From assembly GCF_029542785.1 (NCBI RefSeq), contig NC_083378.1, positions 372,001 through 436,000 of the forward strand: 64,000 nt of DNA, read 5' to 3'. The position numbers were made by a program, and so were the translations under genes. Positions 1-64,000 of the stretch are shown one piece after another. Each line of letters opens with the position of its first letter. Position 1 is the stretch's first letter. This stretch comes from Malassezia japonica. Taxonomy: Eukaryota; Basidiomycota; Malasseziomycetes; Malasseziales; Malasseziaceae. A model generated the notes under the pieces. The model searched no databases, was not told the DNA's origin, and saw nothing but the letters and a program-made list of their open reading frames with translations.

Positions 1-634
1 GCGGGCTCTGTCGTTCCTGCCTCTGTCGCAGGCGCATTATGAGCCGCAATTCCATCAACTTCCCCCGCTTCCTGCTCGTCCTCTTCAAACTTGTGCCGCA
101 ACACGCGCTGCGGCCGGGTGTGGGCACTTGCCGAGCGGACCGTCGAGCCTGCATTAGCTTCAATACGTACGTAGTTTGCGCAGGCTGTTGCCCACACTGC
201 GCGGACCTGTACTCATCGTCAGGCTGCCACGCAGCGTGCGCGATCCCGGCGGCGGCCCCGGCGTCACACACGCGTCCAACGCGGCGCCTTTCTGTGTCGG
301 ACTGTCGGTCGGCGGCGGCGGCGGAGGCGGCGGCGCGGCCGCGCCGGACGCATTGTCCGCGCTATAGATATGACTTATCCGCGGCGGAGTCGGCAGCGGA
401 CTCGCGTCCGTATCTGGCACGGTCCCCGCGCGCTTCGGCGTGCCTGGCGTCGCGCCCTGCGCCATGGCCATCTCCATGGCGCCACGCGGTGTTGTTGTGT
501 TGGACGGAATTATTTTCACGTGTCGTCCGAATGAAGCGCACGTGGTGACCTTAATTTCAGCTGACAAGCGTGCATGCAGCCGTGCATGCATTGAGCTGAG
601 CGTCTTCGCGCCGTAGAAGTTTTCCTTATCCAGC
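1..634 (-). CDS. Unknown Pro-rich protein, 3' end beyond window
   Basis: I do not recognise this protein. The reading frame runs leftward and continues past base 1 after one 22-nt intron at 158-179, whose splice sites (GTACGT, branch CTAAT, GCAG) match all others in the window and whose removal keeps the frame open to the window edge. The visible part has a stretch of eight prolines, many Pro/Thr/Ser residues and, after the intron, an acidic FEEDEQE patch, so it is probably largely disordered. The first possible ATG (634-636) overlaps the start codon of the transporter gene on the other strand, so translation may instead start at an internal Met near 588 or 478. Fungal low-complexity proteins of this kind cannot be assigned from the sequence alone. 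Confidence 0.5.
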
Positions 635-2341
635 ATGTCTGAGCCCGTACTTCAGCCCGGAGGCATTGAGAAAGACTACCACACCGGCGTCCTGAACGAG
701 AAGCTCGAGCATGGCGGTCTCGGTCTCTCTGGCTCGGACGTTCTCTCGCACCACGTCGAAGCTTCGGCTGTGGACGAAGTGTACGCGCGCAAGGTGTATG
801 TGCTCAACAAGATCATCAACGAGCACATCGGCATGACCTGGTGGCACTATGGCCTGTTCCTCGTGTGTGGTGTTGGCTGGTTCCTGGACAATGCGTGGTT
901 GCAGCTGGTCGCGATCATTCTCCCCCAGGTCAAGAACGAGTTCTTCCCCGGTATCACAACGCACGAAGGCATCGCGCAGCCGCGTTTCATGACACTCTCT
1001 GTCTTTGCTGGTATGCTCATCGGCGCTGCGTTCTGGGGTGTGGCTGCAGACATTGTCGGCCGCCGCTTTTCGTTCAACGCGACACTCCTCCTTGCGGCCA
1101 TCTTTGGAACGGCCTCGGGCGGCGCGACGTCCTTTACTGCGCTCGGTGGCCTGTTTGGTGCGCTGTGCTTTGGTCTCGGCGGTGCGCTGCCCGTCGACGG
1201 TATGCTCCTGCTCGAGTTCCTGCCCGGTAACCGCCAGAACCTCCTTGCGGGCCTCTCGGTCTTCTGGTCGCTGGGCCAGCTGATTGCGTCGCTGATTGCG
1301 TGGGGTCTCGTGGTCAAGTTTAGCTGCGACCCCGAGGTCATGGGCGACTGTCTGATCAAAAACTCGCGTGGCTGGGTCGCTTCGAACGCCAGCTGGCGCT
1401 ACCTGATCTTTATTATCGGCGGCATTACCTTCTTTTGCTTCTTTTTGCGTTTCATCGTGTTCCGCATCCCCGAGTCGCCCAAGTACTTCCTGGCGAAGGG
1501 CCGCGACGCGGAGGCGGTTGATGCGATGCACCGCTTTGCCAAGATGTGCGGCCGTCCGCTGCCTGAGGACATGCTCTCTGTGAGCATTCTGCGCTCGGCC
1601 GCGGGCCAGGACGAGTACATGGACTACAAGGAAGAGGTCGTGCGTTCCAAGCTCGGCTTTGTCGACAGCGCCAAAATGTCCCTGCGCAACCTGCGCGAGG
1701 ATCTCGCGCGCAGCTCGAAAGGCAACACGCGCTCCGGCATCAAGGCCCTGTTTGCGACGCGCCAGCTCGGCTACACGACCGCGATGATCTGGCTGCTGTG
1801 GGCTATCATCGGCCTGGCCTACCCCCTCTTTTCTTCGTTCATTGTGCTGTACCTGGGTGACAGTGCGTCGGGCCCTGACTCGACGTACATGACCTACCGC
1901 AACTACGCGATTGTGTCGGTGTGTGGTGTGCCCGGCAGCATTATCGCCGCATTCCTTGTCGAGATTCCCCGCTCGGGCCGCCGCGGTGCGCTGATGATCA
2001 GCACGCTCCTTTCCGGTGTCTTCTTGTTCGGCTTCACGGGTGTGCACACGCCGAATGGCTCGCTGGCCTTTAGCTGTCTCACGACCTTTTTCCAAAACAT
2101 CATGTACGGTGTGCTGTACTGCTACACGCCCGAGTCCTTCCCTGCACCTTTGCGTGGTACGGCCGACGGTATCAGCGCGTCGCTCAACCGCATCACCGGC
2201 ATGGTCGCCGTGATTGTCGCAATCTACGGCTCGTCGGCAAACCCCTCGGCGCCCATCTACATTGCTGCGGCGCTCTTTATTGTCGCTGCGCTGCTGATGC
2301 TCACGCTGCGCGTGGAGACGTCGCACCGTACTGCACTCTAA
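635..2341 (+). CDS. MFS transporter, SV2/SVOP-like (12 TM)
   Basis: A 568-residue major facilitator of the plasma membrane or an endomembrane. About 70 hydrophilic residues precede the first membrane segment (WWHYGLFLVCGVGWFLDNAW, about 70-90). The loop between segments 2 and 3 carries the family motif GVAADIVGRR, and the stretch GGALPVDGMLLLEFLP with the following SVFWSLGQLIASL is typical of the fungal SV2/SVOP-like group. A long central loop (about 290-370) is charged and separates the two six-helix halves. Single exon. The substrate cannot be deduced; relatives move organic acids, phosphate esters or nicotinate-like compounds. The end lies only 14 bp from the end of RPB7 on the opposite strand. 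Confidence 0.85.
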   Translation: MSEPVLQPGGIEKDYHTGVLNEKLEHGGLGLSGSDVLSHHVEASAVDEVYARKVYVLNKIINEHIGMTWWHYGLFLVCGVGWFLDNAWLQLVAIILPQVKNEFFPGITTHEGIAQPRFMTLSVFAGMLIGAAFWGVAADIVGRRFSFNATLLLAAIFGTASGGATSFTALGGLFGALCFGLGGALPVDGMLLLEFLPGNRQNLLAGLSVFWSLGQLIASLIAWGLVVKFSCDPEVMGDCLIKNSRGWVASNASWRYLIFIIGGITFFCFFLRFIVFRIPESPKYFLAKGRDAEAVDAMHRFAKMCGRPLPEDMLSVSILRSAAGQDEYMDYKEEVVRSKLGFVDSAKMSLRNLREDLARSSKGNTRSGIKALFATRQLGYTTAMIWLLWAIIGLAYPLFSSFIVLYLGDSASGPDSTYMTYRNYAIVSVCGVPGSIIAAFLVEIPRSGRRGALMISTLLSGVFLFGFTGVHTPNGSLAFSCLTTFFQNIMYGVLYCYTPESFPAPLRGTADGISASLNRITGMVAVIVAIYGSSANPSAPIYIAAALFIVAALLMLTLRVETSHRTAL

Positions 2342-2355
2342 GTCTCTCATTGCGT

Positions 2356-3000
2356 CTAGTCAAAAGGTCCCAGGTAGTCCTCCTTCATCGTCCCAATGGC
2401 AAACTGCATTAGTCACCGTACGTACAATCTCGTTTGCATCCACACGCGTGCCCACGATACGGATCCGCACCTTGCGGCCCTTGACGAGGTTCTGGGTGAG
2501 CCTGGGCACGTACATCGGTCGGCGAGACAAACTCGGGCGGATTCGCGTCCGGCTGGAACTTGTAGTCGATGGGCAGCAGGTGCGACGAGACAAAGATACT
2601 CAGTGGCCCCACTTCGGCAAAGAAGCCCATTTTGTTCACATTGGTGACGAGCGCGTCCATCACTTCGCCGTTGAACTGGGTCAGCGCTGCAACGTACCGG
2701 CTTCAGGACGATCGCCTGGTATTTGCTGCGGAACTCGGCGAGGCCCGTTCCAGGCATCACCTTGCCCTGTCCGACATCCATGATCGACACGACCTTGATG
2801 ATATAACCCTGCGTGAGCGTCGCGACGTACGTATTTCCCGGTACACGTGCCCTCGACGTCGTCCTTGAGCTTGCGCGACACTGCGTTAGGGCGGAAACTT
2901 ACAGAACTCGACCATCGACGGCCCATAGAATGACGGATGGAGCTCTGTCCGGTGATCCAAGTTTTTCTGCGTCAGCCGCGCGACCTACCAAGAAGAACAT
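2356..3000 (-). CDS. RPB7: RNA polymerase II subunit Rpb7 (seven exons)
   Basis: Stalk subunit of RNA polymerase II that pairs with Rpb4. Exons: 2989-3000, 2903-2966, 2831-2880, 2698-2808, 2514-2675, 2426-2491 and 2356-2403. The spliced product has 170 residues, close to the usual 171-172. It starts MFFLKNLDHRTELHPSFYGP, contains VEGTCTGKYGYII of the N-terminal RNP-like domain and GFFAEVGPLS with IVGTRVDANEIFAIGTMKED of the C-terminal S1/OB fold, and ends DYLGPFD. All six introns (2967-2988, 2881-2902, 2809-2830, 2676-2697, 2492-2513, 2404-2425) are exactly 22 nt. The first exon is 12 nt. The gene shares a 68-bp divergent promoter with RTF2 containing CACGTGAT. Confidence 0.96.
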
Positions 3001-3054: not shown

Positions 3055-3068
3055 CCACCTCCACCAGG

Positions 3069-3921
3069 ATGGTACGTCGTGTGGCTGACGCAGGGAAATG
3101 ACGGTGGCTCGATCGCGAAGCGCGACGATCTCGTGCGCACCAAGGCGGCGGCGAATGAAAAAGTCGACAAGGACGAGGTGCGGCACTCGCTCTGGTCGCA
3201 GTGCCGCCTTACGAAAAAGCCGCTGAGTGCGCCAATCATGGCCGACCGACTCGGCCAGCTCTACAACAAGGACGGCGTGATTGAGTACTTGCTGCGGCGC
3301 GCGCAGGACGAGGCGACGGACGTGGAAAACAAGGCGGCGGGGCATATCAAAGGGCTTAAGGACGTGCGCCAGGTCAAGCTCGCGCAGAGCGCTGCGGGCG
3401 AGGACGACGACCACGCCTACCCCTTTTCGTGCCCCCTGACGCAGCGCGCGCTCACGGGCAAGTTCAAGACGGTGTGCTTGTGGCCGTGCGGATGCGTGGT
3501 GAGCGAGTCCGGCCTGCGCTCCACGACGGGCCTGCAGGGCAAAAAGGACGAACAAGAGACGCCGTGCCCGGTGTGCGAGACGCCCTTCTCGCCCCAGGCC
3601 CTGGCCGAGGGCCGCACGACGCTCGACTCGGACCTCGTGTGGCTCAATCCGCCCGAGGACGAGCAGAGCGAGCTGCGCGCCCTGCTGTCCCAACGCAAGA
3701 ACAAGCGTAAAAAGAACGAGTCGAGCGAAAAGCGCGCCAAGCCGCGGCTGCCGACGCTCAACGACGCCGCGCCCGGTGCGTACGCGGCGCAGCAGGTGCG
3801 TGTGGCCCAGGCGAACGCCGCACACAATGCGCCCGGCGCAAAAGAAAGCGAGGCCATTTCGTCGCTCTACCGCAAGACGCCGTCGAAGCGCGATGTGTGG
3901 CTCGGCAAGCAAGCTTCATAG
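3069..3921 (+). CDS. RTF2: Replication termination factor 2 (Rtf2)
   Basis: Exons 3069-3071 and 3094-3921, 276 residues. The only coding part of exon 1 is the ATG; a 22-nt intron (3072-3093) follows and exon 2 begins GNDGGSIAKR, the invariant Rtf2 N-terminus. The protein has an Rtf2-type RING-like zinc region at about 114-165 (CPLT at 114, LWPCGC, CPVC at 159), then a basic KNKRKKNESSEKR tract and a C-terminal YRKTPSKRDVW motif. Rtf2 in fission yeast stabilises replication forks paused at termination sites and affects splicing of some introns; in vertebrates it is removed from stalled forks by the proteasome. Ends 6 bp from the convergent CCCH gene. Confidence 0.93.
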
Positions 3922-8426: not shown

Positions 8427-10213
8427 CTACATACGCTTTGTCGATCCTGCGCCTTGCAGCAGCACCTGCTTCAGCGGCCCCAGCTCGTTCACCACGTCCA
8501 GGCCGGTCGAGCGCGCCCAGACCAGCGCCTGGAGCGCGGCCTGGCGCACGGACTGCGCGAGCCCGCCGTGCTCCGTGTACGGCGACGCAGGGCGCGTCGC
8601 AAAGAGCCAGTGGAGGTGGTCGGTGACGGAGAGCATCGCCTGGTTCGGCAGGTAGCGCGCCGCTTCGTAGGGACGCAGCGCGCTGTCCGTGCCAATGTCC
8701 ATGCCGTCGGCGGCAGCGGCGGCGAGCGTGTCATTCAGCGCACGCACGTCCTGGATGCCGAGGTTCAGGCCCTGGCCCGAGAGAGGGTGCGTCGTGTGCG
8801 CCGCGTCCCCGACGAGCACCGTGCGCCCTTGGCCCTCGCCACGCGCCGCGCCGCCGGGTGTGAGGCCCAGCGCGGTGAGTGCGCCGGAAATCAGCGCCGA
8901 CGGCGTAGGGAGCGACGTGTGCAGGTTGCGGTTCAGCGTGCTCCCGAGGTAGCACCCCGCGTGCTTGAGCTGCAGGGGAAAGGATGCGACGCTCTTTACG
9001 TCTACCGCGTCGCCCAGCGGGGGGACCGTGCCGAGGTGCGCACTCGGCGCGCGCTCGCCGAGCACCTGCTCCGCGTGCACCATCTCGGCGAGGATCGCGG
9101 CACGGAACGCGGCGACATCAGGCTCGGGCAGCGCCGCGAGGTCTTTGGCCTCGTACACGAGCCGCTCGAGCGCGTCCCACGGCAGGCGGAATCCAGCGGA
9201 AATGAGCGCAGCAAGCAGCGTCGGCATCTCGTTCTGCGCCGCGTCGTGGCGGTGCAGTGCGCCGAGCGCGTCGGCAAGGGGAGGGGGGAGTGCCCACACG
9301 ATCGTGCCGGTGCTCGGCGAGAGGGGAAGGAAGGCGAGCGTGCCCGTCGGCAGGAAGCGCTGCCACGCGCTCTGGTCGACGAGCGGCTCGGCGCTCTGCG
9401 GCGCAATGCCGGTGCGCAGCGTCGCGACGAGGCCTTTGCAGTGGTACGGCCATCCGAAGCTCTCGATGCTAGAAAACTTGCGCACCGGCGAGTTGTGCCC
9501 GTCCGCGCCGACGAGCAGGCGCGTCGCGATCGCCCGCGTCTCGTTCTCGCGCTCGAGCTCGAGGAGCGGCCAGGCGTTTTGGCTCGGCGCGGTAATGTTT
9601 GCGACGCGCGTCTTGTCCAGGATCTCGACCGAGACATTGCACGACGGCTCGGCCGTGCGCGCCTGGATCAGGCGGTAGAGCGCCTGCTGCACGTTGGAGA
9701 TCTCGACCATCGAGCTGAGCGCGCCGTCGGGCCCGGGCCCGGGCCCAAACTCTGCACCGGCGTCCGAGAGGCCGTCCCAGACGCGGATGCGCTCGACGGT
9801 GCGCATGCGCGACCAGTCCAGGTAGGCGTCTGCGCCGATTTCTGGTTTAGTACAGCAACGTACGCTTCATCCACGCGAGGTTGTCCATGTTCATACTAAT
9901 CACGCGGTTCTCCCACTGCACGCCGTCGTGCGCCGCCGTAGCAGCGCGCGTCGTGCTTTTCTTCTGATCCTGCCACGATGCAAAGCGCGACAGGTCCATC
10001 GTGTCCACCAGCGCGACCTTCATCGGGGGGAGTGCGGGATTCGCAACTGCGTCAGTCATGCGACGTACCCAGGCCACCCAGCATCGCGAGGCCGACCACG
10101 CCTCCGCCCACAATCACGATATCCGTATCACTCTTTGCAGGCGTATGCGCAAAACGCACAGGGACGTACATGCGCCGCAGCAGCGGCGCCCGCCGCACGG
10201 CCAAAGCACGCAT
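8427..10213 (-). CDS. COQ6: Ubiquinone biosynthesis monooxygenase Coq6
   Basis: FAD-dependent monooxygenase of the mitochondrial matrix that hydroxylates the coenzyme Q ring at C5. Exons 10069-10213, 9864-10046 and 8427-9841; 580 residues after removal of two 22-nt introns (10047-10068, 9842-9863). The first 25 residues are rich in Arg and Ala with no acidic residue, a good matrix-targeting presequence. The FAD-binding GGGVVGLA sits at about 36-43, the DG motif in LLVGADGHNSP, and the GD motif in LVGDAAHTTHPLSGQG. KVALVDTMDL is the second beta strand that meets FAD. The start at 10213 leaves a 41-bp promoter shared with AFG2. Confidence 0.95.
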
Positions 10214-10254: not shown

Positions 10255-12526
10255 ATGGCGCTGACCGCTCCGCTGCAGGTGACGGTGCGCGGCGCCGGCG
10301 CGTCGCTCGCGGCCGATGCACGGATCCTCGTGCACGGCGATACGCTCAAGAAGCTCAAGATTTCGACAGGGGCGCATGTCGTGGTGCGCAAAGACACCGC
10401 GCTGTTTGCAGGGACAGCGTGGCCGGCGTTTGACCTCGCGCCGCATACCGTGTCGCTGCCGGCAATGCTCGCGGTGCCCGCGGGCCTTGCTGATGGCGAC
10501 AAGGTCGACGTGGACCGTGTTGCGACGGCCAAGCACGACGGGCTTGTTGCGCAGCGCCTGCGCGCGTCGATCACCGAGGTGAAGGACGACCTCCTCCAGA
10601 CGCTTCTTCGCACGGTGCTCCTGCACACCATCGTGGACATTGGCATTGTGCAGCTCGGGTCCGAGCTCGAGTTTGCTTTCCAAGGGCGCACGTACCGCGC
10701 GACATTCACCGACGCGGACGTCGACGAAAAGGAGCACGCCGAAAAAGGGACCTTGGTCCTCGTCACGCGCCAGACGCAGCTCACGCTCACCGAGGCGCAG
10801 GACGCGCCGGCCGAGGCGCTGGTCGACGCGGCGGCGTATGAGGCACTCGGTGGGCTCGACACACAAATCGCGGCGATCCGCACGCTCGTCGAGCTTCCCC
10901 TGACGCGCCCGGCGCTCTTTGAACAGTACGGTCTGCAGCCGCCCCGTGGCGTGCTCCTCTACGGCCCGCCGGGCACCGGCAAGACCTCGCTCGCACGAAC
11001 CGTCGCGGCGTCGCTCCAGGCACACGTGCTGACCATCAACGGCCCCGAGCTCAGCTCGACATACCACGGCGAGACCGAGTCGAAGCTGCGTGCCGTTTTC
11101 GAAGCTGCACAGTCGCACGAGCGCAGCGTCATTATCATGGACGAGATCGACGCACTTGCGCCGCGCCGCGATGCCAGCGCGTCCGTGCAAGGCGAAGGGG
11201 CCGGTGAAGTCGAGCGCCGCGTCGTCGCGACGCTCCTTACGCTCCTCGACGGCGTGCAGACGTCGACGGGGCGCGTGGTCGTCATTGCCGCGACGAACCG
11301 CCCCAACGCACTCGATCCTGCGCTGCGCCGGCCGGGCCGCCTGGACCGCGAGATTGAGATCGGCGTGCCGGACCGGCCAGCGCGCTGTGCAATCCTCGGC
11401 GTGCTCCTGCGCAGGGTCCCCCACGCGCTGAGCGACGACGATCTCGACCTCGTTGCCGGCCGCACGCACGGATACGTCGGCGCCGACCTCTCGGCGCTCG
11501 TGCGTGAGGCAGGCATGGCGGCGATCGCACGCAGCGTGTCGCTCGATGGAAGCATTGCGCACCTCTCGCTCGGTGACGCGACGCCAGAGAAAGTGACGCT
11601 CGCCGACTTTGGGCACGCACAGATGATTGTGCGCCCGTCGGCGATGCGCGAGGTGTTTGTCGAGACGCCCAAGGTCGCCTGGTCGGACATTGCGGACAAT
11701 GGAGACCAGGTCGGCCCGAGCGGCGAGCGCCTGCCGAGCGTCCAGCGCCAGATCCGCGAGTGCGTCGAATGGCCTCTGACGCACGCACATACCTTTAAGC
11801 GCCTAGGCATCCACGCGCCAAAGGGCGCGCTCTTGTACGGCCCGCCGGGCTGCAGCAAGACCATGACCGCCAAGGCGCTCGCGAAAGAGAGCGGCCTCAA
11901 CTTTCTTGCGATCCGCGGCCCCGAGCTCGTGAGTAAGTACGTGGGCGAGTCGGAGCGCGCGATCCGCGAAATGTTCCGCCGCGCGCGCGCCGCTGCGCCG
12001 TCCATTTTGTTCTTTGACGAGCTCGACGCGATCTCGGGTGTGCGCAGCATGGAGTCGAATAACGCGTCGAACGACCGCATTGTCGCGAGTCTCCTTACCG
12101 AGATGGACGGCATCGATACCGAGAACCACGTCGTGGTGGTCGCCGCGACGAACCGGCCGGACTGCATCGACCCTGCGCTGCTGCGCCCCGGGCGCCTGGA
12201 CCGCCTGGTGTACGTCGGCCCGCCGAATGCCGACGCACGCCGCAAGATCCTCGAGATGCGCGCGGCCAAGATGTCGGTCGCGGCCGACGTCGACTTTGGC
12301 GCGGTCGCCGAGCGCGCCGAGGGATGTTCGGGCGCGGAGGTCGTCTCGATCTGCCAGGAAGCCGGCATCCTTGCTATGAACGAAGATATGGACTGCAAAG
12401 AGGTACGTCGCCCTCCTAACCTAGATCGCCGCCCGGCACTGGGACGCCGCCGCGCGCGCCATGAAGCGCCGCATCACCCCCGCGATGCTCGGCCACTATG
12501 CCGCGTGGCGCCAGTCGCTTTCGTAG
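10255..12526 (+). CDS. AFG2: AAA-ATPase Afg2/Drg1, 60S ribosome maturation
   Basis: Cdc48-type double-ring ATPase that strips Rlp24 from cytoplasmic pre-60S ribosomes. Exons 10255-12402 and 12425-12526, 749 residues, with a 22-nt intron ending in CTAG. The N-domain covers about 1-195. D1 has Walker A GPPGTGKT (237-244) and Walker B IIMDEID (293-299). D2 has GPPGCSKT (529-536), the Cys-Ser variant typical of Afg2 rather than Cdc48, and Walker B ILFFDELD (584-591). Sensor and arginine-finger motifs AATNRP and RPGRLDR are present in both rings. The last exon (AARHW...HYAAWRQSLS) restores the conserved Afg2 C-terminus, which supports the intron. Confidence 0.95.
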
Positions 12527-14104: not shown

Positions 14105-15558
14105 ATGTCGCAACGTCCCGAGAACGTCGGTATCAAGGCCATCGAGGTATACTTCCCCAAGCGCGTACGTACCCCCTCTTGACGCAGTGCATTTCTGAAG
14201 CGGATCTGGAGGAGTTCGATGGCGTGTCGAAAGGCAAGTACACGATTGGCTTCGGCCAGCAGTACATGGCCTTTACCGACGACCGCGAGGACATCCAGTC
14301 GTTTGCCTTGACCGCCGTGTCGAACCTGCTCGAAAAGTACAACGTCGACCCCAAGAACATTGGCCGCCTCGATGTGGGCACCGAGACGATCATCGACAAG
14401 TCAAAGGCCGTCAAGACGGTGCTGATGGACCTCTTTGCATCGCACGGCAACACGGACATTGAGGGCATCGACTCGAAGAACGCGTGCTACGGTGGCACCG
14501 CTGCGCTCTTTAATGCGGTCAACTGGATCGAGTCCAGCTCGTGGGACGGCCGCGAGGCGATTGTGTTTGCGGGCGACATTGCGATCTACGCCGAGGGCAG
14601 CGCGCGCCCGGTCGGCGGCGCGGGCGCGGTCGCGATGCTGATCGGCCCTAATGCCCCGCTAGTCATGGAACGTACGTCTCTTCTTCTCACCCAGCCGTGC
14701 ACGGAACGCACATGATCAACGCTTGGGACTTTTACAAGCCCGATCTCTCGTCCGAGTACCCCCAGGTCGACGGCCCTGAGACGCTGCAGACCTACCTCGG
14801 CTCGGTGGATGCTTCGTACGATGCTTTCCGTGCCAAGTACAGCAAGCTCGCCAAGTCCAAGGGCCTGCCGCTGAACAAGAGCGCGACGTCGCAGGACCCG
14901 CGCGCCGACTTTAGCCTCGCGGACGTCGACTTTGTCGCACTGCACTCTCCTTACGCAAAACTCGTGCAGAAGGGCTTTGCTCGCATGGTACGTTTCTCTT
15001 CTCACCCAGCTTTACAACGACTACCTCGCCGATCCCACCAACGAAAAGTACGCCGAGGTGCCCGCCGAGTACAAGGACCTCGACCGCCGGTCAACCATCA
15101 CCAACAAGGACCTCGAGAAGCTCTTTACCGCGCTCGCGAAGCCCCTCGGCAACGAGAAGCTCGAGCCGGGTATGGACACGGTGCGCCGCTGCGGTAACAT
15201 GTACACCGGCTCGCTGTACGGCGGCTTTGCCTCGCTCCTCTCGAACAAGTCGAGCGAGGAGCTGCAGGGCAAGCGCATCCTGATGTACTCCTTCGGCTCG
15301 GGCTGCGCCGCCTCGATGTTTGTCATCCGCGTCGCGGGTGCTACGGACAAGATCCGCGCGACGCTCGACCTGACGGAGCGCCTCGCGGCCATGCAGGTCG
15401 TGCCGTGCAACGCGTACGTCGACGCGCTCAAGACGCGCGAGGCGACGCACAACGCGGTCGCTTACGACCCGCAGGGTTCGCTCGAGGACCTCTGGAAGGG
15501 CGCCTACTACCTCGCCAAGGTCGACGACAAGTACCGCCGCTTTTACGAGCGCGTTTAG
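14105..15558 (+). CDS. ERG13: Hydroxymethylglutaryl-CoA synthase
   Basis: Cytosolic enzyme that joins acetyl-CoA and acetoacetyl-CoA to HMG-CoA, the entry of the mevalonate and ergosterol pathway. Exons 14105-14164, 14188-14671, 14695-14987 and 15010-15558; 461 residues, normal for the family. Introns are 23, 23 and 22 nt. The catalytic Cys lies in [13 protein letters not shown] (about Cys120), the general-base Glu in [16 protein letters not shown], and the catalytic His in [15 protein letters not shown]. Family N-terminus: [29 protein letters not shown] follows. The C-terminal [12 protein letters not shown] loop is intact. The gene has a longer upstream region than its neighbours, consistent with regulation. 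Confidence 0.96.
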
Positions 15559-19554: not shown

Positions 19555-20701
19555 ATGGCGAGCGAGGCGACGCGCCGCAGTAACCATGCGGTGCGCGCCA
19601 AGTACGAAAAGATTGACAAGATTGGCGAGGGTACCTTTGCCGCCGTCTTCCTAGCTCGCAATGTCCAGACCGGGACCAAGGTTGCGATCAAGAAAATCAA
19701 GACGGCCGCCGCCGGCACGCGCGACGGGATCGATATCACGGCGATGCGCGAGTTCAAGTTCCTCAAGGAGCTGCATCACCCCAATGTCGTCGCGCTGCTG
19801 GACGTATTTTCGTCCGGTGCGAGTGCGCCGTCGATCAACCTGGTGCTGGAATACCTCAATACGGACCTCGAGGCGATCATCAAAGACCGTGCCCTGCTCT
19901 TTTCCGCGAGCGACATCAAGAGCTGGATGCTGATGCTCTGCCGCGGCATTGAGTACTGCCACCGGAACTACTGCTTGCACCGCGTACGTTTTCCATCTGA
20001 CTTTCAGGACTTGAAGCCCAACAACTTGCTCATCTCGCCGTCCGGCGAGCTCAAGATTGCCGACTTTGGCCTGGCGCGCGAGTGTGGCGACCCCGGCGCG
20101 CGCATGACGTCGCAGGTCGTTACGCGGTGGTACCGTTCTCCCGAGCTCCTTCTCGGCGCACGCTCCTACTCGGCCGGCGTCGACATGTGGGCGGTCGGCT
20201 GCATCTTTGCGGAGCTCATGCTGCGCACGCCCTACCTCCCTGGCGAGTCGGATGCGACACAGCTCACTACGATCCTACGTGCACTCGGCACGCCGACCAG
20301 TGCCGAGTGGCCGGTACGTTGCTTTTCTTACCCAGCAATATGCGACGCTCCCCGATGCCGGCAAGCTCGAGTCGTTTCCGAAGCAGAATCTCGCGTTCCT
20401 CTTTACCGCCGCCTCGAGCGAGACGCTGGATCTGCTCGGCGCGTGCTTGCGCTACGACCCGCTGAAGCGCGTGCGTGCGTCCGAAGCGCTCCACCACGCC
20501 TACTTCCGCGCCGGCCCTCTGCCGACGCCCCCCGCCCATCTCCCCCGCCCTGCCCAGAGCGCGGAGGAGCCCAAGGTGGAGATCGAGGCGCCCCCCGCGC
20601 CGGTCCCTGCCGCGCCCAAGGCCGCTGGCGGCAAGCGGGCGCTGACCGACGACGAGATTGCGCATCGCAAGCGTCTCGCACATCGCGTCGCGTTTTCGTA
20701 G
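19555..20701 (+). CDS. KIN28: CDK7/Kin28 kinase of TFIIH
   Basis: Cyclin-dependent kinase that phosphorylates Ser5 of the RNA polymerase II tail. Exons 19555-19983, 20008-20313 and 20336-20701; 366 residues. Introns of 24 and 22 nt; the first falls exactly between Arg143 and Asp144 of the HRD catalytic loop. Catalytic Lys46 in VAIKKIK, DFGLAR at about 162, activation-segment Thr in MTSQVVTRWYRSPELL (about Thr177). VVTRWYRSPELLLGAR and the GIDITAMREFKFLKEL helix are those of the CDK7 group, not of Cdc28. The glycine loop reads GEGTFAAVF, with Ala where Gly or Tyr is common. The tail ends ALTDDEIAHRKRLA, like the end of other fungal Kin28 proteins. Confidence 0.93.
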
Positions 20702-35297: not shown

Positions 35298-35364
35298 AAA
35301 AACATAATTGTCTCATAAGAGACACTCTTCTCTGATCATGATTGTCATCCTTACTGCAGGGACC

Positions 35365-35395
<31 letters not shown>

Positions 35396-42872: not shown

Positions 42873-43500
42873 ATGCGCCAAGCGTCGGGGTCGGGTGCGC
42901 GGCGCGAAGGAGGGCGCCTCGCGATCCCCGTGAATGTCGCGGACGAGGATCTGGACGAGTACATTGCCGAGATGATTCTGTCCGAGGCGCGGGCGAAGGA
43001 GCTCGCTTATGAGCGCCGCAATTCGGGGACTTGTACGACGTACGTCGCGTCACTGACCCAGTTCCAAGGCGCCTGCACGCACCAACAAGCGGTTTCTGGC
43101 GTCGATGATACGCAGCGTCGACTCGCACAACCAGCGGCAAGAGGCACACGAGGCAGAGGTCGCACAGGCGCAGCGGCCGAGGGAGCGCGAGCTGCTTCCC
43201 AACCACGGGTCCCGGGGACTGCGCATGGACCGTGCCGAGGCGCGAGCGGGCTCGCGTTGGGATGTGCGGCCTGAGCGCGAGGGGCGCGAGCAGAGTGGCG
43301 ATCGCGAGCGCCGCGATCGTCCCGAGCGATACGACCGCGACCGCCACGAGCGCCCCAGCGGCAATCGGTACGAGCGTCTACGGTCGGACCGCCACGCACG
43401 GCCTACACTCTACCGCACGCGCTCGCCGTCGCCCGAAATTGGGCCGCAGCCTGCTGCTCCTGTGCGCCAGTGGGATGTTGGCAAGGATCTGTCGTTTTAG
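42873..43500 (+). CDS. Small basic, Arg/Asp-repeat protein
   Basis: Exons 42873-43039 and 43062-43500; 201 residues; a 22-nt intron. I do not recognise a named family. The first 55 residues contain the acidic helix ADEDLDEYIAEMILSEARAK. After the intron comes TNKRFLASMIRSVDSHNQ, a motif I associate with small conserved nuclear proteins of fungi, then a long RD/RE/RER repeat region (DRERRDRPERYDRDRHER) and a conserved-looking end QWDVGKDLSF. The alternating-charge tail resembles that of spliceosomal and mRNA-binding proteins. It shares a 48-bp promoter with SYF1. A nuclear RNA-processing role is a guess from these features. Confidence 0.6.
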
Positions 43501-43609: not shown

Positions 43610-45861
43610 TTATCTACGGAGGCAGTACGCCACGAGCGCCACGAGCACGGCCAGTAGCACGGCCCATAGGATACCCTTTTTTTCTTGCGCACTCACCGAG
43701 AGCACGACGCTGTGCACTGCGCCGGGCTTGTGCACGCTGTGCTCGACATAGAGCGTTTGCTCCTCAGGCACGTAGCGGTACGTTCCGTCGCTGAGCGCAA
43801 CGTGCACCGCCACGCCCCGGAAATGAAAGTCGGGAACGTAGATCTCGGTCGCGGCGTGGATGGACCGGGGGCCATTCTTCCAGCGAAAATGCAGCGACTT
43901 TTTGCGCGCGTCCCACTTGGTCGACAGCGGAATGCCTGCGACCTTGCAAGCGTACGGCCGCAGAATCGCACCGAGTGCACGTCCGCCGCGGTACAGCATC
44001 TCGTCGCGCCGCGCATTGTCGCGGTCCGCTGCGGCGTGTTCAAAGTTGACGATGGAAAAGTCTTCCTGGTTCCACCCATCGCCGAGCGCGACTTTGTTCG
44101 CGGGGTTGTAGTTCCACAGCGTGAATGAAATAAGGTTGCGCTCGAGGCCAGACACGAGCGCGGTAAGGAGCGTCGTCTGCACACGATAGTCGCCCGGACG
44201 CGTGCGCAGTGTATCGTTCACATCGTAGGGGATGCCAACCTCGCCGACCAGGATCGGCACCTCGCCGAGCGACGCGTAGCCCCTGCTACACAGCTGCGCA
44301 AGCTGCTTGTAGTAGTTGCGTGCAAGGCCGCGTGCGCCAAAGTACACTGCAAACAGAATAAACATGCCGCGGCTCAGGCCTTGGACATTCACGCTCATGC
44401 CGTTGTACGCCTTGAAGAAGAGCACGTTTAGGTCGTAAAAGTGCGGTCCATACACCAGGTTTGCCGGGCGCGGCGCCGTGATGACCGTCGCGGCGGTCAG
44501 CGGCGCAGGGCGTGCGCCGTCGTCCGACGTCCACCGCGGCATAAACTCGTTTGGAATGGGCTCGACGAGCAGCAGTGCTTCCGGCGCAGCGTGGTGCAAG
44601 CTGAGTTAGTCGCGCGACGTACCGTTCGCTGAACGCATGCAAGAACGGCGCATACAGGTCCTGGTAGAACTCGATCTTGCGGCGCCCTTGGCCGGGCCGC
44701 GGATCCACTGAAAAGTAGTCCGCCTGCAAGACGATCGGCTTGTTCTTTTGCGCGTCCCACTCCCACACGCCGTGCTCGCGCCAGATGCATCCGGAGGATT
44801 TGCGCGTGTTCGGAAACTCGCGCGGGGCGATCCACACGCTCTTCTTCGGATCGACACGCGTCTTGTGCGACATGCGCGACGGAAACGGCCACGACTTGAC
44901 GTAGAACGGAATGTCCTGTACGTGTCCGTCGCTCAGCGCAAAGCCTTGGAGGGCGGAGGGATAGTGACCAATGTGCAGATCCGTCTCGTAGCACCAGTGG
45001 TGAAACGAGTAGAGGTCGATGTAGCCGCGGTGGGGCTCGTTCATCAGATCAAAGCCGGCAAATGACGGACACAGCACGAGCGCCTCGACGAGCTGCGCGT
45101 ACGCGGCAATGTACGACGCCTGCAAAAAGTCCTGGATGTTTTGGGGACGCGCAGCGCCAGTGTGGTCCGTCTCAAGGCACAGATTCGGCGCAAAAATACG
45201 GCCGCCCCAAAAGAGCGTCGCCATCGTCGCGGGCGCCATCTTTTGGTATCCCGACGGCCAGTTAAAGGGTCCGGTCGGCTCCGCCTTGCCGGGGGGCGCA
45301 GCGCTCGAAAGCGGCTCGCCGTCGGCTTCCGGCACGAGCGCCGCGCCGGTCGCGTGCAGCCGCGCGACGTCGAGGCCGGCGGCGGTAAACGTCCACCCCG
45401 GCGCACCGCTCCCGCCACACAGGCGGCTCCATACGTCCTGGTGCGCACAAACAATCACCTTGAGGCCGTACGCCTCCATTACTGCAAGCAGCTTCTGCAG
45501 GTAGACGACGTACGCCCCGTCGATCGGATGCGCAGGGCACGGGCCGTCATGCGACAGTGCCTCCCACGTCACCAGGAGACGCACGAGCGTCATGCCCCAC
45601 TGCCGCAGGCGCGCGCAGTGCTCGTGCGCCTCGTCCAGCGGAAAGGGACGGTCGACAAACGAGATCGTTTGCGAATTTTTGTAGGCGTCTTGGAGCGACG
45701 GCGCGCTTGGGCTGGGTCAGTCGGGGGACGTACATCTTGCTCACGCCAGCGACATTCACGCCGCGCAGGAGTAGCACACGCCCATGCGCGTCCACAAAGT
45801 AGCGGCCATCAATACGGATGGGCCCGCCGAGCGCCGCACCGCTCAGGTCCGCAGCGGTCAT
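43610..45861 (-). CDS. GH5 steryl-glucosidase/EGCrP-like hydrolase
   Basis: Exons 45734-45861, 44623-45711 and 43610-44600; 735 residues; two 22-nt introns. N-terminal RIDGRYFVDAHGRVLLLRGV with NVAGVSKIPS and RLRQWGMTLVRLLVTWEA, then FAGFDLMNEPHRGYIDL (acid/base Glu) and LLLVEPIPNEFMPRW (probable nucleophile Glu). This is the endoglycoceramidase-related branch of GH5, whose fungal members cleave glucosylceramide (EGCrP1) or ergosteryl-glucoside (EGCrP2/Sgl1). No N-terminal signal peptide; a C-terminal hydrophobic anchor (ILWAVLLAVLVALVAY) suggests a tail-anchored membrane enzyme. Which glycolipid it uses cannot be told. Confidence 0.88.
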
Positions 45862-58969: not shown

Positions 58970-59207
58970 CTAGTGGTGCTCTTCATGGTGGTCACCGTGG
59001 TGGTCCCAAGGGTGGCGCCATCCCTGTGTGTGAGCTTTCCAGCGGTGTACATACTAGCAGAACCGGTCCGTCCTCCTTCATACGGTAAAAGATCCAGAAC
59101 CACATCGTAGCACCCAGCAGTTTCGCGGTCCAGCGGTGGTGGAATGCAGGCTTGTGCGGGTGGAACCCAAACATGGGCTTGTACCAGCCTCCCGGAGCGC
59201 CGGCCAT
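58970..59207 (-). CDS. Complex I accessory subunit NDUFB2
   Basis: Small subunit of mitochondrial NADH dehydrogenase. Exons 59055-59207 and 58970-59023; 68 residues from MAGAPGGWYKPMFGFHP (an in-frame ATG at 59252 would add 15). The membrane stretch LLGATMWFWIFYRMKEDGPV joined over a 31-nt intron (59024-59054, GTATGT) to LLGWRHPWDHHGDHHEEHH reproduces the plant and fungal NDUFB2 pattern: MWFW(I/V)xYR, GPVxLGWRHPW and a His-rich end. The retained-intron reading would destroy this end. Presence of complex I genes argues against a fermentative budding yeast. Confidence 0.9.
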
Positions 59208-59324: not shown

Positions 59325-61800
59325 ATGAGTCTCAACGTCAACGGACTCCCTGATAAAGGGCTCCTAAGCGATGCTGCCGTGTTTGCGCGGCTCGATCCGC
59401 TTGCTGCCCCGCTCGTGTCGCACCTGCAGAGCCGCTCGCTCACGGTTCCGACGCGCTCGGCGCCGCTCGATGGCCGCCAGCTCGCCCAGTTTGTCTACGA
59501 TCTGGGCGTCTTTCAAGAAAAGGTGCTGGGTTTCGGCGCTGCGCGCCCTGAGAACCCCAGTGCTGAAAATAAGAGTGCACAACACCCCCTGCGCATTCCT
59601 GCCTCGCTGCTGATGACCCATCCGTCGCTGACGGACTTTTCGGCACTGGACACGAAAGCGCCGCTGTACGCCGTGCTCGAGGCCGCATTTACCTTCCTTG
59701 GCGAGAAGAACGAGAGCTCCTGGGACATGGAGGATGCACAGAAGCGCACGCTCTACGTGGAGATGATTGCGAGCGTCCGCCGCACGCTGCGTGCGTCCAA
59801 CGTCCTCCCGGCGGTGCGCATCGCCGTAACGAGCGACGTGACCGAGGCCGAGGCCACGCACTTGCGTGGAATTGCTGCGCGGATCGGATGTACGTTTATC
59901 TGCTGACCCAGGCGACTGGACCGACGACTCGACGCAGGCGACGCATGTGCTTAAAGTCTCGAACGAGCCCATGTCGGACGCCAGTTCGCACGAAAAGCCG
60001 CCCGAGTCGGAGTACTTCCGCACCGTGGCGCATCACGATAGCAAAGTGCTGATCCACGTGTGGTACCGGCCCGACTCGTACGATACGTGGCTCCCGGACA
60101 AGGACTTTTCCGAGCCGGAGCCTGCGCCGGCGCCGCGCACGTCGGCGTGGGAGATTAGCGCACGCTGGCTGCGCGATGCTGACCTCTACAATGAGCTCAT
60201 GAACGAGGAGGACTACGAGGCGGATGAGGAGGCGGACGACGCGCCCGACTCGAACGACTCGGCGCGCTCCAAGAAACACAACCTCCCCGATTCGATCAGC
60301 GACGATGCGGCGAACAAGCGCATCAAGCTGCTGGTCGGCGCGAAGCCCGCGAATGCCACGCCGATTGACCTCTCTGGCGCACAGCCGATCCCGGGCAAAA
60401 AGTACGAGAGCGAGCCCGTGTCCGGCGGCACACTCGGCAACCTGCCGCAGGAGGCCGAGCCCGCGGCGCCGGCGAGCGCCGAGCCGCTCCCGGTGCGCGA
60501 GGCGGCTACATCTGATGCACAGGCCGGCGACGTGCCCGCGCCTCCGACCGAGCACACGTCGCTGGACGCGGACGAGGTCGCCCAGACTGCGCGCAAGTAC
60601 CTCTCTGAGCAGACGCAGGAAGTGATCGTCCCGTCATACTCGACGTGGTTCGACATGGGCCATATCCACGCGATCGAGCGCCGCTCGCTCCCCGAGTTCT
60701 TCAACAACAAGAACCGGAGCAAGACGCCGACGATCTACAAAGACTACCGCGACTTTATGATCAATACCTACCGCCTGAACCCCTCCGAGTACCTCACGTT
60801 CACCGCGTGCCGCCGCAACTTGGCGGGTGACGTATGTGCGATCATGCGCGTGCACGCCTTCCTCGAGCAGTGGGGCCTGATCAACTACCAGGTGGACCCC
60901 GAGACGCGGCCCGCATCGCTCGGCCCGCCGTTCACTGGCCACTTCCGCGTGCTGGTCGACACGCCCCGCGGCCTCGCGCCGTTGCACCCCGGCACGGCGC
61001 CCGAGGCGCCTGCGCCGCAGCCCGAGAGCGTCAAGCCCGAGACGGACCACGGCGAGATTACGCTCGAGCTGCGCCGCTCCGTCTTCCAGTCGACGCTCAA
61101 AGGCTCGCGGCCAGTGGACTATGCAGAGGCGAGCTCGCTTGCGTCCGAGGCGCAAAAGGAGCTCGAGAATGACGACAAGAAGCCCGCGTACGCGTGCGAT
61201 ACCTGCGGCGTAAACTGCACGCAGTCGCGCTACCAAAGCACGCGCGCCAAAGACTTTGCGCTGTGCTCCAACTGCTACCTCGAAGGGCGCTTCCCCACGT
61301 CGATGTACTCGGGCGACTTTGTGCGCCTCGAGGACGCGGCCTTTAAGCACCCCGGCAGCGCGAATGGCGCGTCGGACGACGACTGGAGCGACGAGGAGAC
61401 GCTCAAGCTCCTCGAAGGCCTCGAGATGTACGAGGAGGACTGGGGCTCGATCGCCTTGCACGTCGGCACACGCTCGCGCGAGCAGTGCATCACCAAGTTT
61501 ATCCAGCTCCCGATCCAGGACAAGTACCTGGACGGCGCAGCGCAGTCGGACCTCGGTCCGCTGAAGTACGCGCCGCGCGACGCTACCGGCAAGCACACGC
61601 CGCTCGTGCCCTTTGCGCAGGCTGAGAACCCCGTCATGAGCGTCGTGGCGCTCCTTGCGAGCGCGGTGAGCCCCGCGGTAGCGAGCGCCGCTGCACAGAG
61701 CGCGCTCGGCGAGCTGACCGACGGCATCAAGAAGCGCATCCAAGAGGCCGGCAAGGAAGGCGCCACAGACGCCATGGCGGTGGACGAGGCGCCCGAGACC

Positions 61801-61836
<36 letters not shown>

Positions 61837-62313: not shown

Positions 62314-62338
62314 CGATAGCTAGAGTACATGTATCGAC

Positions 62339-64000
62339 CTAATGCGTCTTGTCCTTGGGCGAGTCGCGCCCGTCTCCGTCGAGCTCCGCCTCGCGCTCGT
62401 ACGGCACGCTGACGTTCGCCCATGCGGCGCTCGACTCCTCGACAAAGTCGCGAGTCGCTGCGCGGCGTGCCTGCAGCTGCTCCTTGCGCTGCTCATGCTT
62501 GCGGTTGGCCACAGAGTTGCTAAACATGGGCAGCAGGTAGCGCTCGTCGATCCGCTGGAACCACTGCCCATCCTGGAAGATGAGGTTCGCGCGGTCGAGC
62601 ACGTGGCGGGTGCGCGTCGGCACTTCGCCTGTCTCGTCCGTGTCCTCGACCTCGTCGCGGGTTAGGCTGCGCAGTCCGCCGGGGCCGGCGACCATCGCTT
62701 GGGGCCCGTCCTGCGCAGAGTCGGGCAGCACCTCGTTCAGGTCGATCGGCGACCGGACCTCGCCGAGGCTCGCATCGCGGTAGCGCCCGGCGGGCGTCGC
62801 ACGCGTGCGCAGCTGCGAGGGAAAGCGGGGCGCAGCGATCCACGGCTGCGTGTCGGGGTCCTCGTCGGGGTCGGCGACCGACCCTTCGTCCTCGTCGTCC
62901 TCGACGCCGGTCTGGATCTGGAGGACCTCGAGCATCTGCGCGGTCGTCCCGCCAAAGACAATCACGGTCAGGACCACGGCGACGAGGACGGTTGTCTGCA
63001 GCGCACTCGCATTGGTCCCTTCGATGCCTGCACTCAGCGCAAAGCCGACCGCGCCACGCAGGCCCGCCCAAAAGAGCATAAGCTGGTACTCGCGGGGGAG
63101 CTCGAACGTGGCCTCTGGCAGGCCCGCGCCGCTCGTGCGCTGGCGGTGCTTGGCCCGGAGGTCGGCGAGGCGGTTCAGCGCGTAAGCGATCGGGAACACG
63201 GCGCAGTAGCGCGACACGACCACTGCGGCGAGCGTAAAGATGATGAGCAGGGGCTTGTACACGAGCCCTTCTCCAGTAAAGAGGCTCAGACCAAGGTAGA
63301 TAAAGATAAAGTTCTCCGAGAGGCTCGCGAGCGTCTGGAAGATGTACTTGGTCGTCCGCTGCGTGCGCAGCGACATGTTGTGGTACGCATAGTGTTTGAG
63401 CGTGATACCACAGAAAAGCAGCGACACGATCCCGCTCATCTGCACCGCATTGCTGAAGAAGTAGCTCGTGTACGCCAGCAGCATCACGATACAGCTCTCC
63501 AGCTCGGGGTACAGTCCGAGGCGCGAGTGCTTGAGCAGGAGCGAGCACGACAGGCCGAATGCCACGCCGAGGATCATACTCAGCGAAAAGACGACCCAGA
63601 ACAGGCCCACACCGTGAAATAGCGAGAAGAGTGTGATGGTCGTGTTGCGGAACTTGGACAAGGTCTCGAACATGACGATCGACACGGCATCGTTCAGGAT
63701 ACTCTCGCCAAAGATGATGCTGTACAGCTGGGGGTCCACACGGTACGTGTTAAAGATCGCAAGAATCGTCACGGGGTCCGTCGCACTGAGCGTGCTGCCA
63801 AAAATGAGGCACTCGAGCAGCGTGAGGCGTGGCGACTCGAGGTGCAGGAGGGAGGCGACCCATACGATAACACTGCGTCAGCCACAGTACATACCCAATC
63901 ACGATCGCACTGATAAACGTGCCAAAGAAGGCAAACGTCAGAATCGTGCCAAAGTTGCGGAAGAACTTGGCCTGCCGCAAGTCGTAGCCACTCGCGAGGA
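62339..64000 (-). CDS. NHX1: Endosomal Na+/H+ exchanger Nhx1 (5' part missing)
   Basis: Cation/proton antiporter of late endosomes and vacuoles that sets luminal pH. The gene continues beyond base 64000. Visible exons 63895-64000 and 62339-63872, split by a 22-nt intron (GTATGT) within the helix [14 protein letters not shown]. The family signature [17 protein letters not shown] and the ion-binding [16 protein letters not shown] are intact, as are [19 protein letters not shown] and the late membrane motif [16 protein letters not shown]. The cytosolic tail of about 200 residues is acidic ([18 protein letters not shown]). The GYDL near the window edge and the ATDP and NDAV sequences place it in the NHE6/7/9-Nhx1 branch. 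Confidence 0.94.

What the first reader, a model, noticed from the sequence alone, without database searches (positions are those of the whole stretch)
158..63894. Intron lengths are quantised: 24 of 44 introns are exactly 22 nt, none shorter
I placed 44 introns by protein homology and frame. Lengths: 22 nt (24 introns), 23 (6), 24 (1), 25 (1), 26 (3), 28 (3), 30 (3), 31 (2), 41 (1). The hard floor at 22 and the fixed build (six-base 5' site, seven spacer bases, CTNAY, four bases ending AG) put the branch adenosine at base 17, six bases from the end. This is near the smallest spliceosomal intron known in any eukaryote and implies a spliceosome tuned to one geometry, and probably intron definition with almost no room for U2AF contacts. 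Since 22 is 1 mod 3, retention always shifts the frame, so missed splicing is exposed to nonsense-mediated decay.
Basis: partly seen in the sequence, partly recalled or inferred. Interest (0 to 1): 0.85.

Follow-up and report, generated by a model that had tools for sequence, protein, structure and literature searches.

The report
Fixed 22-nucleotide introns in Malassezia yeast
A Malassezia skin yeast carries thousands of ultra-short introns, most often exactly 22 bases long and practically never shorter, which shows very directly how small a stretch of RNA its splicing machinery can remove.

Summary
Splicing restores conserved proteins; RPB7 alone has six 22-nt introns. In the 8.43-Mb genome, GTANGT-N7-CTNAC-NCAG occurs 2,329 times (backwards control 0); GTACGT sites with a shorter spacer occur 6 times (control 5). 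A gene finder without a length term put 70 of 163 introns at 22 nt and none below; with its branch-point term off, 6 of 197 fell below.

The floor is two floors added: at least 17 nt up to the branch adenosine and at least 5 nt after it. The organism is a Malassezia. U2, U6 and both U2AF subunits are present, so U2AF is not lost. Shorter introns (15-21 nt) are known in ciliates, mikrocytids and nucleomorphs. 'Very short' Malassezia introns are in print; I found no report of a 22-nt mode.

Unexpected: the donor is GTACGT. +4 is C in 77% and A in about 1%, although a METTL16-family gene is kept. No U1 gene and no canonical U1 5' end (ATACTTACCT) was found. No RNA data were available.

The parts
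2404..2988 (-). RPB7 gene part with six 22-nt introns: 2967-2988, 2881-2902, 2809-2830, 2676-2697, 2492-2513, 2404-2425
   Evidence: spliced frame = RPB7; residues 2-167 aligned to chain 3h0g_G (Rpb7), E 6.7e-64; sequences
149..170 (-). 22-nt intron
   Evidence: motif and open frame on splicing only, no homology support
3072..3093 (+). 22-nt intron directly after a start codon in the gene model
   Evidence: gene model
10047..10068 (-). 22-nt intron, COQ6-like monooxygenase (name from sequence reading, not searched)
   Evidence: open frame on splicing, frame broken if kept
12403..12424 (+). 22-nt intron, AAA-ATPase-like gene 10255-12526 (name from sequence reading)
   Evidence: gene model
14165..14187 (+). 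23-nt intron, HMG-CoA synthase gene
   Evidence: Pfam HMG_CoA_synt_N 4-177 runs across the junction at residue 20
14672..14694 (+). 23-nt intron, HMG-CoA synthase
   Evidence: Pfam HMG_CoA_synt_C 180-460 runs across the junction at 181
14988..15009 (+). 22-nt intron, HMG-CoA synthase
   Evidence: Pfam HMG_CoA_synt_C runs across the junction at 279
19984..20007 (+). 24-nt intron, protein kinase gene 19555-20701
   Evidence: Pfam Pkinase 17-302 runs across the junction at 143
20314..20335 (+). 22-nt intron, same kinase gene
   Evidence: Pkinase runs across the junction at 245
20755..20780 (-). 26-nt intron, mitochondrial ATP synthase B gene
   Evidence: gene model; junction at the edge of the Pfam match 74-235
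21366..21395 (-). 30-nt intron, same gene
   Evidence: gene model; junction lies outside the Pfam match
21416..21456 (-). 41-nt intron, same gene
   Evidence: gene model; junction lies outside the Pfam match
21706..21731 (+). 26-nt intron, PDK-like kinase (name from sequence reading)
   Evidence: motif; frame open with or without splicing, splicing would create the start codon
25897..25918 (-). 22-nt intron, mitochondrial carrier (name from sequence reading)
   Evidence: splicing gives the carrier's end and a stop; the gene finder had chosen a 92-nt alternative
26540..26561 (-). 22-nt intron, same carrier gene
29786..29807 (+). 22-nt intron
   Evidence: gene model 26907-29965
29866..29893 (+). 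28-nt intron
   Evidence: gene model 26907-29965
30269..30299 (-). 31-nt intron, ribosomal protein L21e gene
   Evidence: gene model; junction at 110 lies outside the Pfam match 1-88
30456..30485 (-). 30-nt intron, ribosomal protein L21e gene
   Evidence: Pfam Ribosomal_L21e 1-88 runs across the junction at 58
31308..31335 (+). 28-nt intron, ribosomal protein S4/S9 family gene
   Evidence: S4 domain 114-158 runs across the junction at 141
32551..32932 (-). five introns of a TFIIS-N-domain (Iws1-like) gene: 32910-32932 (23), 32861-32890 (30), 32805-32827 (23), 32668-32689 (22), 32551-32575 (25)
   Evidence: open frame on splicing; Med26/TFIIS-N domain at 205-254, beyond all five junctions; the gene finder chose 35 nt for the first one
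33336..33358 (+). 23-nt intron, WD-repeat-like gene 33153-35275 (name from sequence reading)
   Evidence: gene model
35313..35417 (-). U6 spliceosomal RNA gene, ACAGAG box intact
   Evidence: Rfam RF00026, 80.8 bits; sequence
36421..36448 (+). 28-nt intron, gene 35965-37879 (RNA-binding protein by sequence reading)
   Evidence: gene model
38652..38673 (+). 22-nt intron, ubiquitin hydrolase gene
   Evidence: Pfam UCH 203-584 runs across the junction at 216; Malassezia homologues
38781..38803 (+). 23-nt intron, ubiquitin hydrolase
   Evidence: UCH runs across the junction at 251
40049..40074 (-). 26-nt intron, Syf1-like splicing-factor gene 39813-42824 (name from sequence reading)
   Evidence: gene model
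40541..40562 (-). 22-nt intron, Syf1-like gene
   Evidence: gene model
43040..43061 (+). 22-nt intron
   Evidence: open frame on splicing, frame broken if kept
44601..44622 (-). 22-nt intron, gene 43610-45861
   Evidence: gene model
45712..45733 (-). 22-nt intron, gene 43610-45861
   Evidence: gene model
59024..59054 (-). 31-nt intron, small mitochondrial NDUFB2-like gene (name from sequence reading)
   Evidence: open frame on splicing
59890..59911 (+). 22-nt intron, SWI3/RSC8-like gene 59325-62313 (name from sequence reading)
   Evidence: gene model
63873..63894 (-). 22-nt intron, Na+/H+ exchanger-like gene (name from sequence reading)
   Evidence: open frame on splicing, frame broken if kept

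Best explanation
These are genuine U2-type spliceosomal introns of a compact Malassezia genome that have shrunk until they hit a mechanical lower bound. The bound is a sum of two minimal distances, each visible by itself. At least 17 nt are needed from the first intron base to the branch adenosine: a six-base donor, seven free bases, then CTNA. At least 5 nt are needed from the base after the branch A through the final AG. The inferred working is as follows. The donor is read by U1 and then by the intact U6 ACAGAG box. CTNAC pairs with the intact GUAGUA of U2. The seven-base spacer is the shortest thread that spans the two helices. The 5-nt tail lets the first AG after the branch reach the active site for exon ligation without a polypyrimidine tract there. 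U2AF35 and U2AF65, both retained, would act on the AG, the branch protein or the spacer rather than on a downstream tract. Deletion-driven compaction then piles introns up at 17+5=22, with a falling tail above. Shown: sequences, floors, gene presence, restored proteins. Inferred: splicing in cells, branch nucleotide, division of labour, mechanical cause, compaction.
For: Genome-wide 1,784 + 545 strict 22-mers, control 0. Below-floor sites are at control level: 6 against 5. Separate floors: k<7 gives 5 against control 5, j=0 gives 0 against 2, and k=7/j=1 gives 89. With no length term the gene finder puts 70 of 163 introns at 22 nt and 0 below. With its branch-point term switched off it still puts 74 of 197 at 22, with 6 scattered below. 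Of 142 called introns of at most 60 nt, none has a tail under 5; four score best with the branch A before position 17, of which three have a later CTNAY at 17 or beyond and one has no consensus branch point. Spliced RPB7 is intact and other proteins are restored. U2 has a canonical branch-recognition region and U6 is intact. U2AF65 and U2AF35 are present. The same 5-nt tail is seen in Stentor (15 nt, branch A at 10; PMC9505925) and follows by my arithmetic from the 2-nt BP-AG distance of Yarrowia (PMC2483917).
Against: No RNA evidence was available. The gene finder's splice-site matrices were seeded with motif matches of at least 22 nt (5' site, branch and AG; no length term), and candidates under 14 nt cannot hold all signals, so shorter introns with other or weaker signals could be missed. 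With GT-AG as the only signal it overfits (520 introns in 61 fused genes, 76 below 22), though 22 is still the top length with 33. A pure pile-up against a wall does not predict the G/pyrimidine preference at +8/+9 seen in 22-mers (57 and 85% of 99 listed C1 sites; 54 and 90% of 70 called 22-mers against 25 and 69% of 48 introns of 24-45 nt). The cause of the 17-nt limit is inferred; Stentor manages 10.
Confidence: 0.8

Rival explanations
1. A retuned spliceosome prefers the 22-nt geometry actively: 22 is an optimum, not only a wall, supported by altered donor recognition (GTACGT with C at +4 and G-pyrimidine at +8/+9) and perhaps a changed U1 RNA.
For: +4 is C in 1,784 of 2,329 strict sites, and A in only 5 of the 100 non-C sites listed, all on C1. 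The +8/+9 signature is much stronger in 22-mers than in longer introns. ATACTTACCT occurs 0 times in the genome, and no U1 is found by Rfam even at E 10.
Against: The U6 ACAGAG box and U2 GUAGUA are unchanged. 23-, 26- and 30-nt introns use the same donor. The missing U1 may be a search or assembly limit.
Confidence: 0.2
2. Length is under selection for quality control: 22 = 1 mod 3, so retention always shifts the frame and exposes the mRNA to nonsense-mediated decay.
For: All 22-mers shift the frame by arithmetic.
Against: Introns of 24-45 nt are not depleted in multiples of three (20 of 48), and only 47 of 139 carry an in-frame stop inside. NMD genes were not tested.
Confidence: 0.05
3. The 22-mers are recent copies of a mobile intron element (introner) of fixed length.
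For: Uniform length and build; +7 to +9 is CGC in 22 of 99 listed sites.
Against: 97 different 7-nt spacers among 99 listed sites, phases 0/1/2 spread 28/20/22 among 22-mers, and lengths tail off above 22.
Confidence: 0.03
4. The segments are a chance or coding motif, not introns.
For: None beyond the lack of RNA data; one listed window intron (21706) has a frame that is open either way.
Against: Control counts are 0. Removal restores conserved proteins, and retention breaks the frame in 5 of 6 cases looked at.
Confidence: 0.01

Closest known systems
Stentor coeruleus 15-16-nt introns (PMC9505925; first part of six and passages read)
   Same: Length nearly fixed; branch A at a fixed place with a 5-nt tail; U2AF1 and U2AF2 retained
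   Different: Donor-to-branch 10 instead of 17; no strong branch consensus and AU-rich; here CTNAY is strong, the window is 58-69% G+C by 2-kb segment and longer introns coexist
Mikrocytid 16-17-nt introns (PMC10245619; passages read)
   Same: Uniform length, conserved sequence
   Different: Strongly reduced spliceosome and 224 introns; here 2,329 strict 22-nt sites and both U2AF genes kept
Bigelowiella nucleomorph introns, 18-21 nt (PMC10245619 passage; median 19 in the PMC2483917 table)
   Same: Narrow size range at a lower limit
   Different: Hardly any CTRAY branch motif (1.4% in that table)
Yarrowia lipolytica, Trichomonas and Giardia 3' ends (PMC2483917; passages read)
   Same: Branch motif anchored at a fixed short distance from AG with no polypyrimidine tract; Yarrowia's 2-nt BP-AG distance equals the one here
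   Different: Those are intron-poor genomes; Yarrowia introns are long (median 204). Here about one short intron per called gene, and the third base of the branch motif is free
Malassezia short introns (PMC7426719, PMC9241646, PMC4634964; passages read)
   Same: Same genus; 'very short introns' stated; M. restricta median 30 nt
   Different: No mode at 22 nt, floor or branch geometry in the passages read; M. globosa mean 79 nt in that annotation

Membership tests
U2-type (major) spliceosomal introns | GT...AG ends | tested here: met
   All 43 listed window introns; they were found with GT-AG patterns, though the gene finder also allowed GC donors
U2-type (major) spliceosomal introns | Branch motif complementary to U2 GUAGUA | tested here: met
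   CTNAY is the best-scoring 5-mer in 137 of 139 called introns of at most 45 nt (the branch term was part of the model); U2 region intact
U2-type (major) spliceosomal introns | U1, U2, U4, U5, U6 RNAs present | tested here: inconclusive
   U2 and U6 found; U1 not found; U4 and U5 searched only in the window, none there
U2-type (major) spliceosomal introns | Removed from mRNA | not testable with these tools
   No RNA data; only restored reading frames and proteins
Ultra-short, length-restricted introns (Stentor, mikrocytid, nucleomorph kind) | Sharp mode with a hard lower bound below about 30 nt | tested here: met
Ultra-short, length-restricted introns (Stentor, mikrocytid, nucleomorph kind) | All introns within 1-3 nt of the mode | tested here: not met
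   Tail up to 41 nt in the window, longer in C1
Introners | Near-identical copies at unrelated sites | tested here: not met
   97 distinct spacers among 99
Malassezia as source | Nearest named proteins from Malassezia | tested here: met
   63% Malassezia sp. CBS 17886 and 63% M. psittaci, each below one 98% or 92% unnamed record; TTAGGA telomere-like repeat as reported for M. furfur (PMC10100673)

The most novel reading that the evidence does not exclude
The splicing code itself has shifted in this yeast. The donor is GTACGT with A at +4 nearly excluded (about 1%) although a METTL16-family gene is kept. That is a third state beside the known +4A (METTL16 kept) and +4U (METTL16 lost) of Saccharomycotina. 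It would be accompanied by a U1 RNA whose 5' end no longer reads AUACUUACCU, and by a donor extension (G at +8, pyrimidine at +9) favoured when the intron is at the 22-nt minimum. On top of this, the 5-nt branch-to-end tail shared with Stentor and Yarrowia would be a universal limit of the second splicing step, while the donor-to-branch limit (17 here, 10 in Stentor) is what evolves.
Probability: 0.2. Interest if true: 0.8.

Novelty: new variant of a known kind. Interest (0 to 1): 0.6.

Why it matters
How short an intron the spliceosome can remove, and which of its two spans sets the limit, is an open structural question. This genome offers more than two thousand sites of the minimal build in a yeast lineage. 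They come with a conserved branch motif, intact U2 and U6 pairing regions and both U2AF subunits, so the minimum is reached without losing these parts. It separates the limit into 17+5 and makes it testable by adding or removing single bases. It also warns that annotation pipelines with a minimum intron of 30 nt would miss most introns here (120 of 163 called ones are shorter) and break reading frames.

Tried and rejected
U1 compensation idea. Pattern ATACNTACCT gave 57 genome sites, none with T at the variable base. I looked at all 57: 51 sites in 52 loci (loci, read; one site fetched twice) plus 6. 24 of the 52 loci and 1 of the 6 are antisense intron donors by an automatic motif check. Every site not so flagged was scanned with Rfam at E 10 without a U1 hit. 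ATACTTACC[ACG] gave 13 sites, many of them branch-point/AG ends of introns on visual reading, none U1 by Rfam. A U1 loop pattern gave 11 sites: 10 looked like coding sequence and 1 a gene end next to the telomere repeat on visual reading, none U1 by Rfam. RF00003 gave nothing at E 0.001 or 10; that search scored 41 of 132 first-look candidates, so absence is not shown. So neither an ordinary nor a changed U1 is established.

Introner idea: rejected on spacer diversity. Frame/NMD selection: no 3n depletion. 'U2AF lost' idea: rejected. 'METTL16 lost' as cause of non-A at +4: rejected in its simple form, a family member is present. Its best solved relative by score is psilocybin synthase (E 2e-43) ahead of the U6 methyltransferase chains (8e-26), so U6 methylation is not shown.

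Gene-finder calls of 88, 92 and 97 nt in the window were judged fused or antisense models and dropped from my list; 35 nt at 32898-32932 was replaced by 23 nt. The gene finder also missed the RPB7 gene with its six introns. Introns longer than 60 nt on C1 (18 of 130) were not checked one by one and some are probably artefacts. A run with GT-AG as the only signal overfitted and was not used.

Full report
What was checked. The finding says that introns in this window are quantised at 22 nt with a hard floor. I treated the sequence pattern, the reality of the introns and the interpretation apart.

Source. The window is C9:372001-436000 of an unnamed 8,433,779-base genome in 9 contigs. A PHO84-like transporter (635-2341) has its nearest named relatives in Malassezia (63% to Malassezia sp. 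CBS 17886), below one unnamed record at 98%. The spliced ubiquitin hydrolase has M. psittaci 63% and M. yamatoensis 61%, below an unnamed 92% record. The end region of contig C2 carries TTAGGA repeats (L088), the motif reported for M. furfur (PMC10100673, one passage). So this is a Malassezia, possibly of the M. furfur group; the species is not settled.

Pattern in the window. A scan for GTRNGY...CTNAY...AG shows 24 hits at 22 nt against 0-6 at neighbouring lengths, 23 of them with seven bases between donor and CTNAY and one base before YAG; the reversed window shows 2 at 22 nt. My final list has 43 introns: 23 of 22 nt and 20 of 23-41 nt.

Pattern in the genome. GTACGT-N7-CTNAC-NCAG: 922 + 862 sites, backwards control 0. 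The same with A, G or T at +4: 274 + 271, control 0. Exact GTACGT sites with a spacer of 0-6 and 0-1 bases before CAG: 6, control 5. In 264 kb held here (window plus C1:100001-300000), the spacer/tail table has 89 sites at (7,1), then 12 at (8,1), 10 at (7,2) and 5 at (8,2). Spacers under 7 give 5 (control 5) and zero bases before YAG gives 0 (control 2). The floor is therefore two independent floors, 17 nt to and including the branch A and 5 nt after it.

Gene finding without a length term. A small dynamic-programming gene finder of my own (codon scores, splice-site matrices, introns of 10-200 nt allowed) called 132 genes and 163 introns in the 264 kb: 70 of 22 nt, 21 of 23, none below 22. 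Its matrices were seeded with motif matches of at least 22 nt, so it is independent in length only, and it effectively tests lengths from 14 up. With the branch-point term off and introns up to 60 nt, 74 of 197 (or, with a stricter penalty, 69 of 175) are 22 nt, and 6 (or 7) scattered calls fall below. With GT-AG alone it overfits into fused genes: 520 introns, 76 below 22, with 22 still the commonest length at 33. Called introns of at most 60 nt number 30 in 27 window genes and 112 in 105 C1 genes.

Are they introns? Removing six 22-nt segments on the minus strand at 2404-2988 yields one continuous RPB7 whose residues 2-167 align with the solved Rpb7 chain 3h0g_G (E 6.7e-64), with a 2-residue gap in one place. 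HMG-CoA synthase, a protein kinase, mitochondrial ATP synthase B, ribosomal proteins L21e and S4/S9, a TFIIS-N protein and a ubiquitin hydrolase give their Pfam domains after splicing; with RPB7 that is 8 of 8 proteins given. In the seven without RPB7, the domain runs across 9 of 18 junctions; the other 9 rest on the gene model. Seven introns that the gene finder missed or mis-joined also give open frames when spliced; of the six, five break the frame if kept and one (21706) stays open either way.

Signals. In the 70 called 22-mers: +3 A 97%, +4 C 73%, +5 G 100%, +6 T 94%, CTNAY, CAG 93%. Genome-wide +4 is C in 1,784 of 2,329 strict sites (77%). Among the 100 non-C sites listed, all on C1, G 55, T 40, A 5, which puts A near 1% by extrapolation. 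Exonic bases are weak (-1 G 45%, -2 A 27%). At +8 and +9, 22-mers prefer G (54%) and pyrimidine (90%); introns of 24-45 nt do so much less (25% and 69%). Among 99 sites listed on C1 the values are 57% and 85%, with 97 different spacers.

Machinery. U6 lies in the window with an intact ACAGAG box. U2 is intact at GUAGUA. U2AF large subunit is at C9:362333-363724, E 3.9e-66, though below the NCBIfam model's curated cut-off when scored exon by exon. U2AF35 is at C4:144362-144892, 60% identical to the human piece used, in one 250-aa frame. A METTL16-family gene is at C8:266816-267695. U1 was not located by two Rfam searches and three patterns, and ATACTTACCT is absent. U4 and U5 were searched only in the window; SF1 and NMD factors were not searched.

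Mechanism. The most economical reading is a geometric wall. The donor must sit in U6 and the branch region on U2 at once, and seven free bases are the shortest link seen; after branching, five bases are the shortest tail that still presents AG. The 5-nt tail equals that of Stentor's 15-nt introns (branch A at 10; PMC9505925) and follows from Yarrowia's 2-nt BP-AG distance (PMC2483917; my arithmetic). So the tail limit may be general while the donor-to-branch limit differs among lineages. Genome compaction then pushes introns to the wall. This is inference; the +8/+9 signature of 22-mers and the +4C donor are not explained by it.

Compared with what is known. Shorter length-restricted introns exist in Stentor, mikrocytids and the Bigelowiella nucleomorph (PMC10245619, passages); Trichomonas has 23-nt introns called among the shortest known (PMC12316389, passages). 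Constrained BP-AG distances are known in Yarrowia, Trichomonas and Giardia, all intron-poor (PMC2483917); the Ustilago maydis median there is 95 nt. For Malassezia, 'very short introns' is stated in a review (PMC7426719, passage); M. restricta mean/median is 37.2/30 nt and M. arunalokei 68.1/40 (PMC9241646); M. globosa mean 79 in another annotation (PMC4634964). Searches listed no paper whose title or abstract start names a 22-nt mode or branch geometry in Malassezia; three of these listings were capped (30 of 74, 30 of 186, 40 of 91). Two relevant papers I know of (M. sympodialis proteogenomics 2017 and genome 2013) are not held, so prior mention cannot be excluded.

+4 and METTL16. In Saccharomycotina, METTL16 presence goes with +4A and absence with +4U (PMC10581693, passages; the word Malassezia does not occur there). 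Here a METTL16-family gene coexists with +4C, a state that rule does not cover. Whether U1 or another factor compensates is open.

Verdict. As a phenomenon it is a new variant of a known kind; the record-size, U2AF and NMD parts of the interpretation are weakened.

Noticed in passing
L088 (C2:1413700-1413950): Tandem TTAGGA repeats near a contig end, not TTAGGG; TTAGGA is reported for M. furfur (PMC10100673, passage). Suggests chromosome-scale contigs.
   Followed up: partly
22-nt introns on C1 and in the window: G at +8 and pyrimidine at +9 are enriched in 22-nt introns but much less in longer ones; no explanation found.
   Followed up: partly
whole genome G000: No U1 RNA found and no ATACTTACCT site at all.
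   Followed up: yes
window 2404-2988 (-): RPB7 is cut by six introns, all exactly 22 nt, the densest cluster in the window.
   Followed up: yes
window 3072-3093 (+) and 21706-21731 (+): One intron begins directly after the start codon in the gene model; at the other, splicing would create the start codon from AT and G.
   Followed up: no
L009 (U2 gene): The U2 Sm-site region reads ATCTTTTTCG, where the Rfam consensus has AUUUUUgg.
   Followed up: no
L042, C8:266816-267695: METTL16-family methyltransferase whose best solved relative is psilocybin synthase; the match runs over an in-frame stop, apparently an intron.
   Followed up: partly
L037:1524-1622 and 2264-2347: Possible box C/D snoRNA below Rfam's cut-off, starting about 20 nt after an intron-donor-like site, and a tRNA gene.
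   Followed up: no
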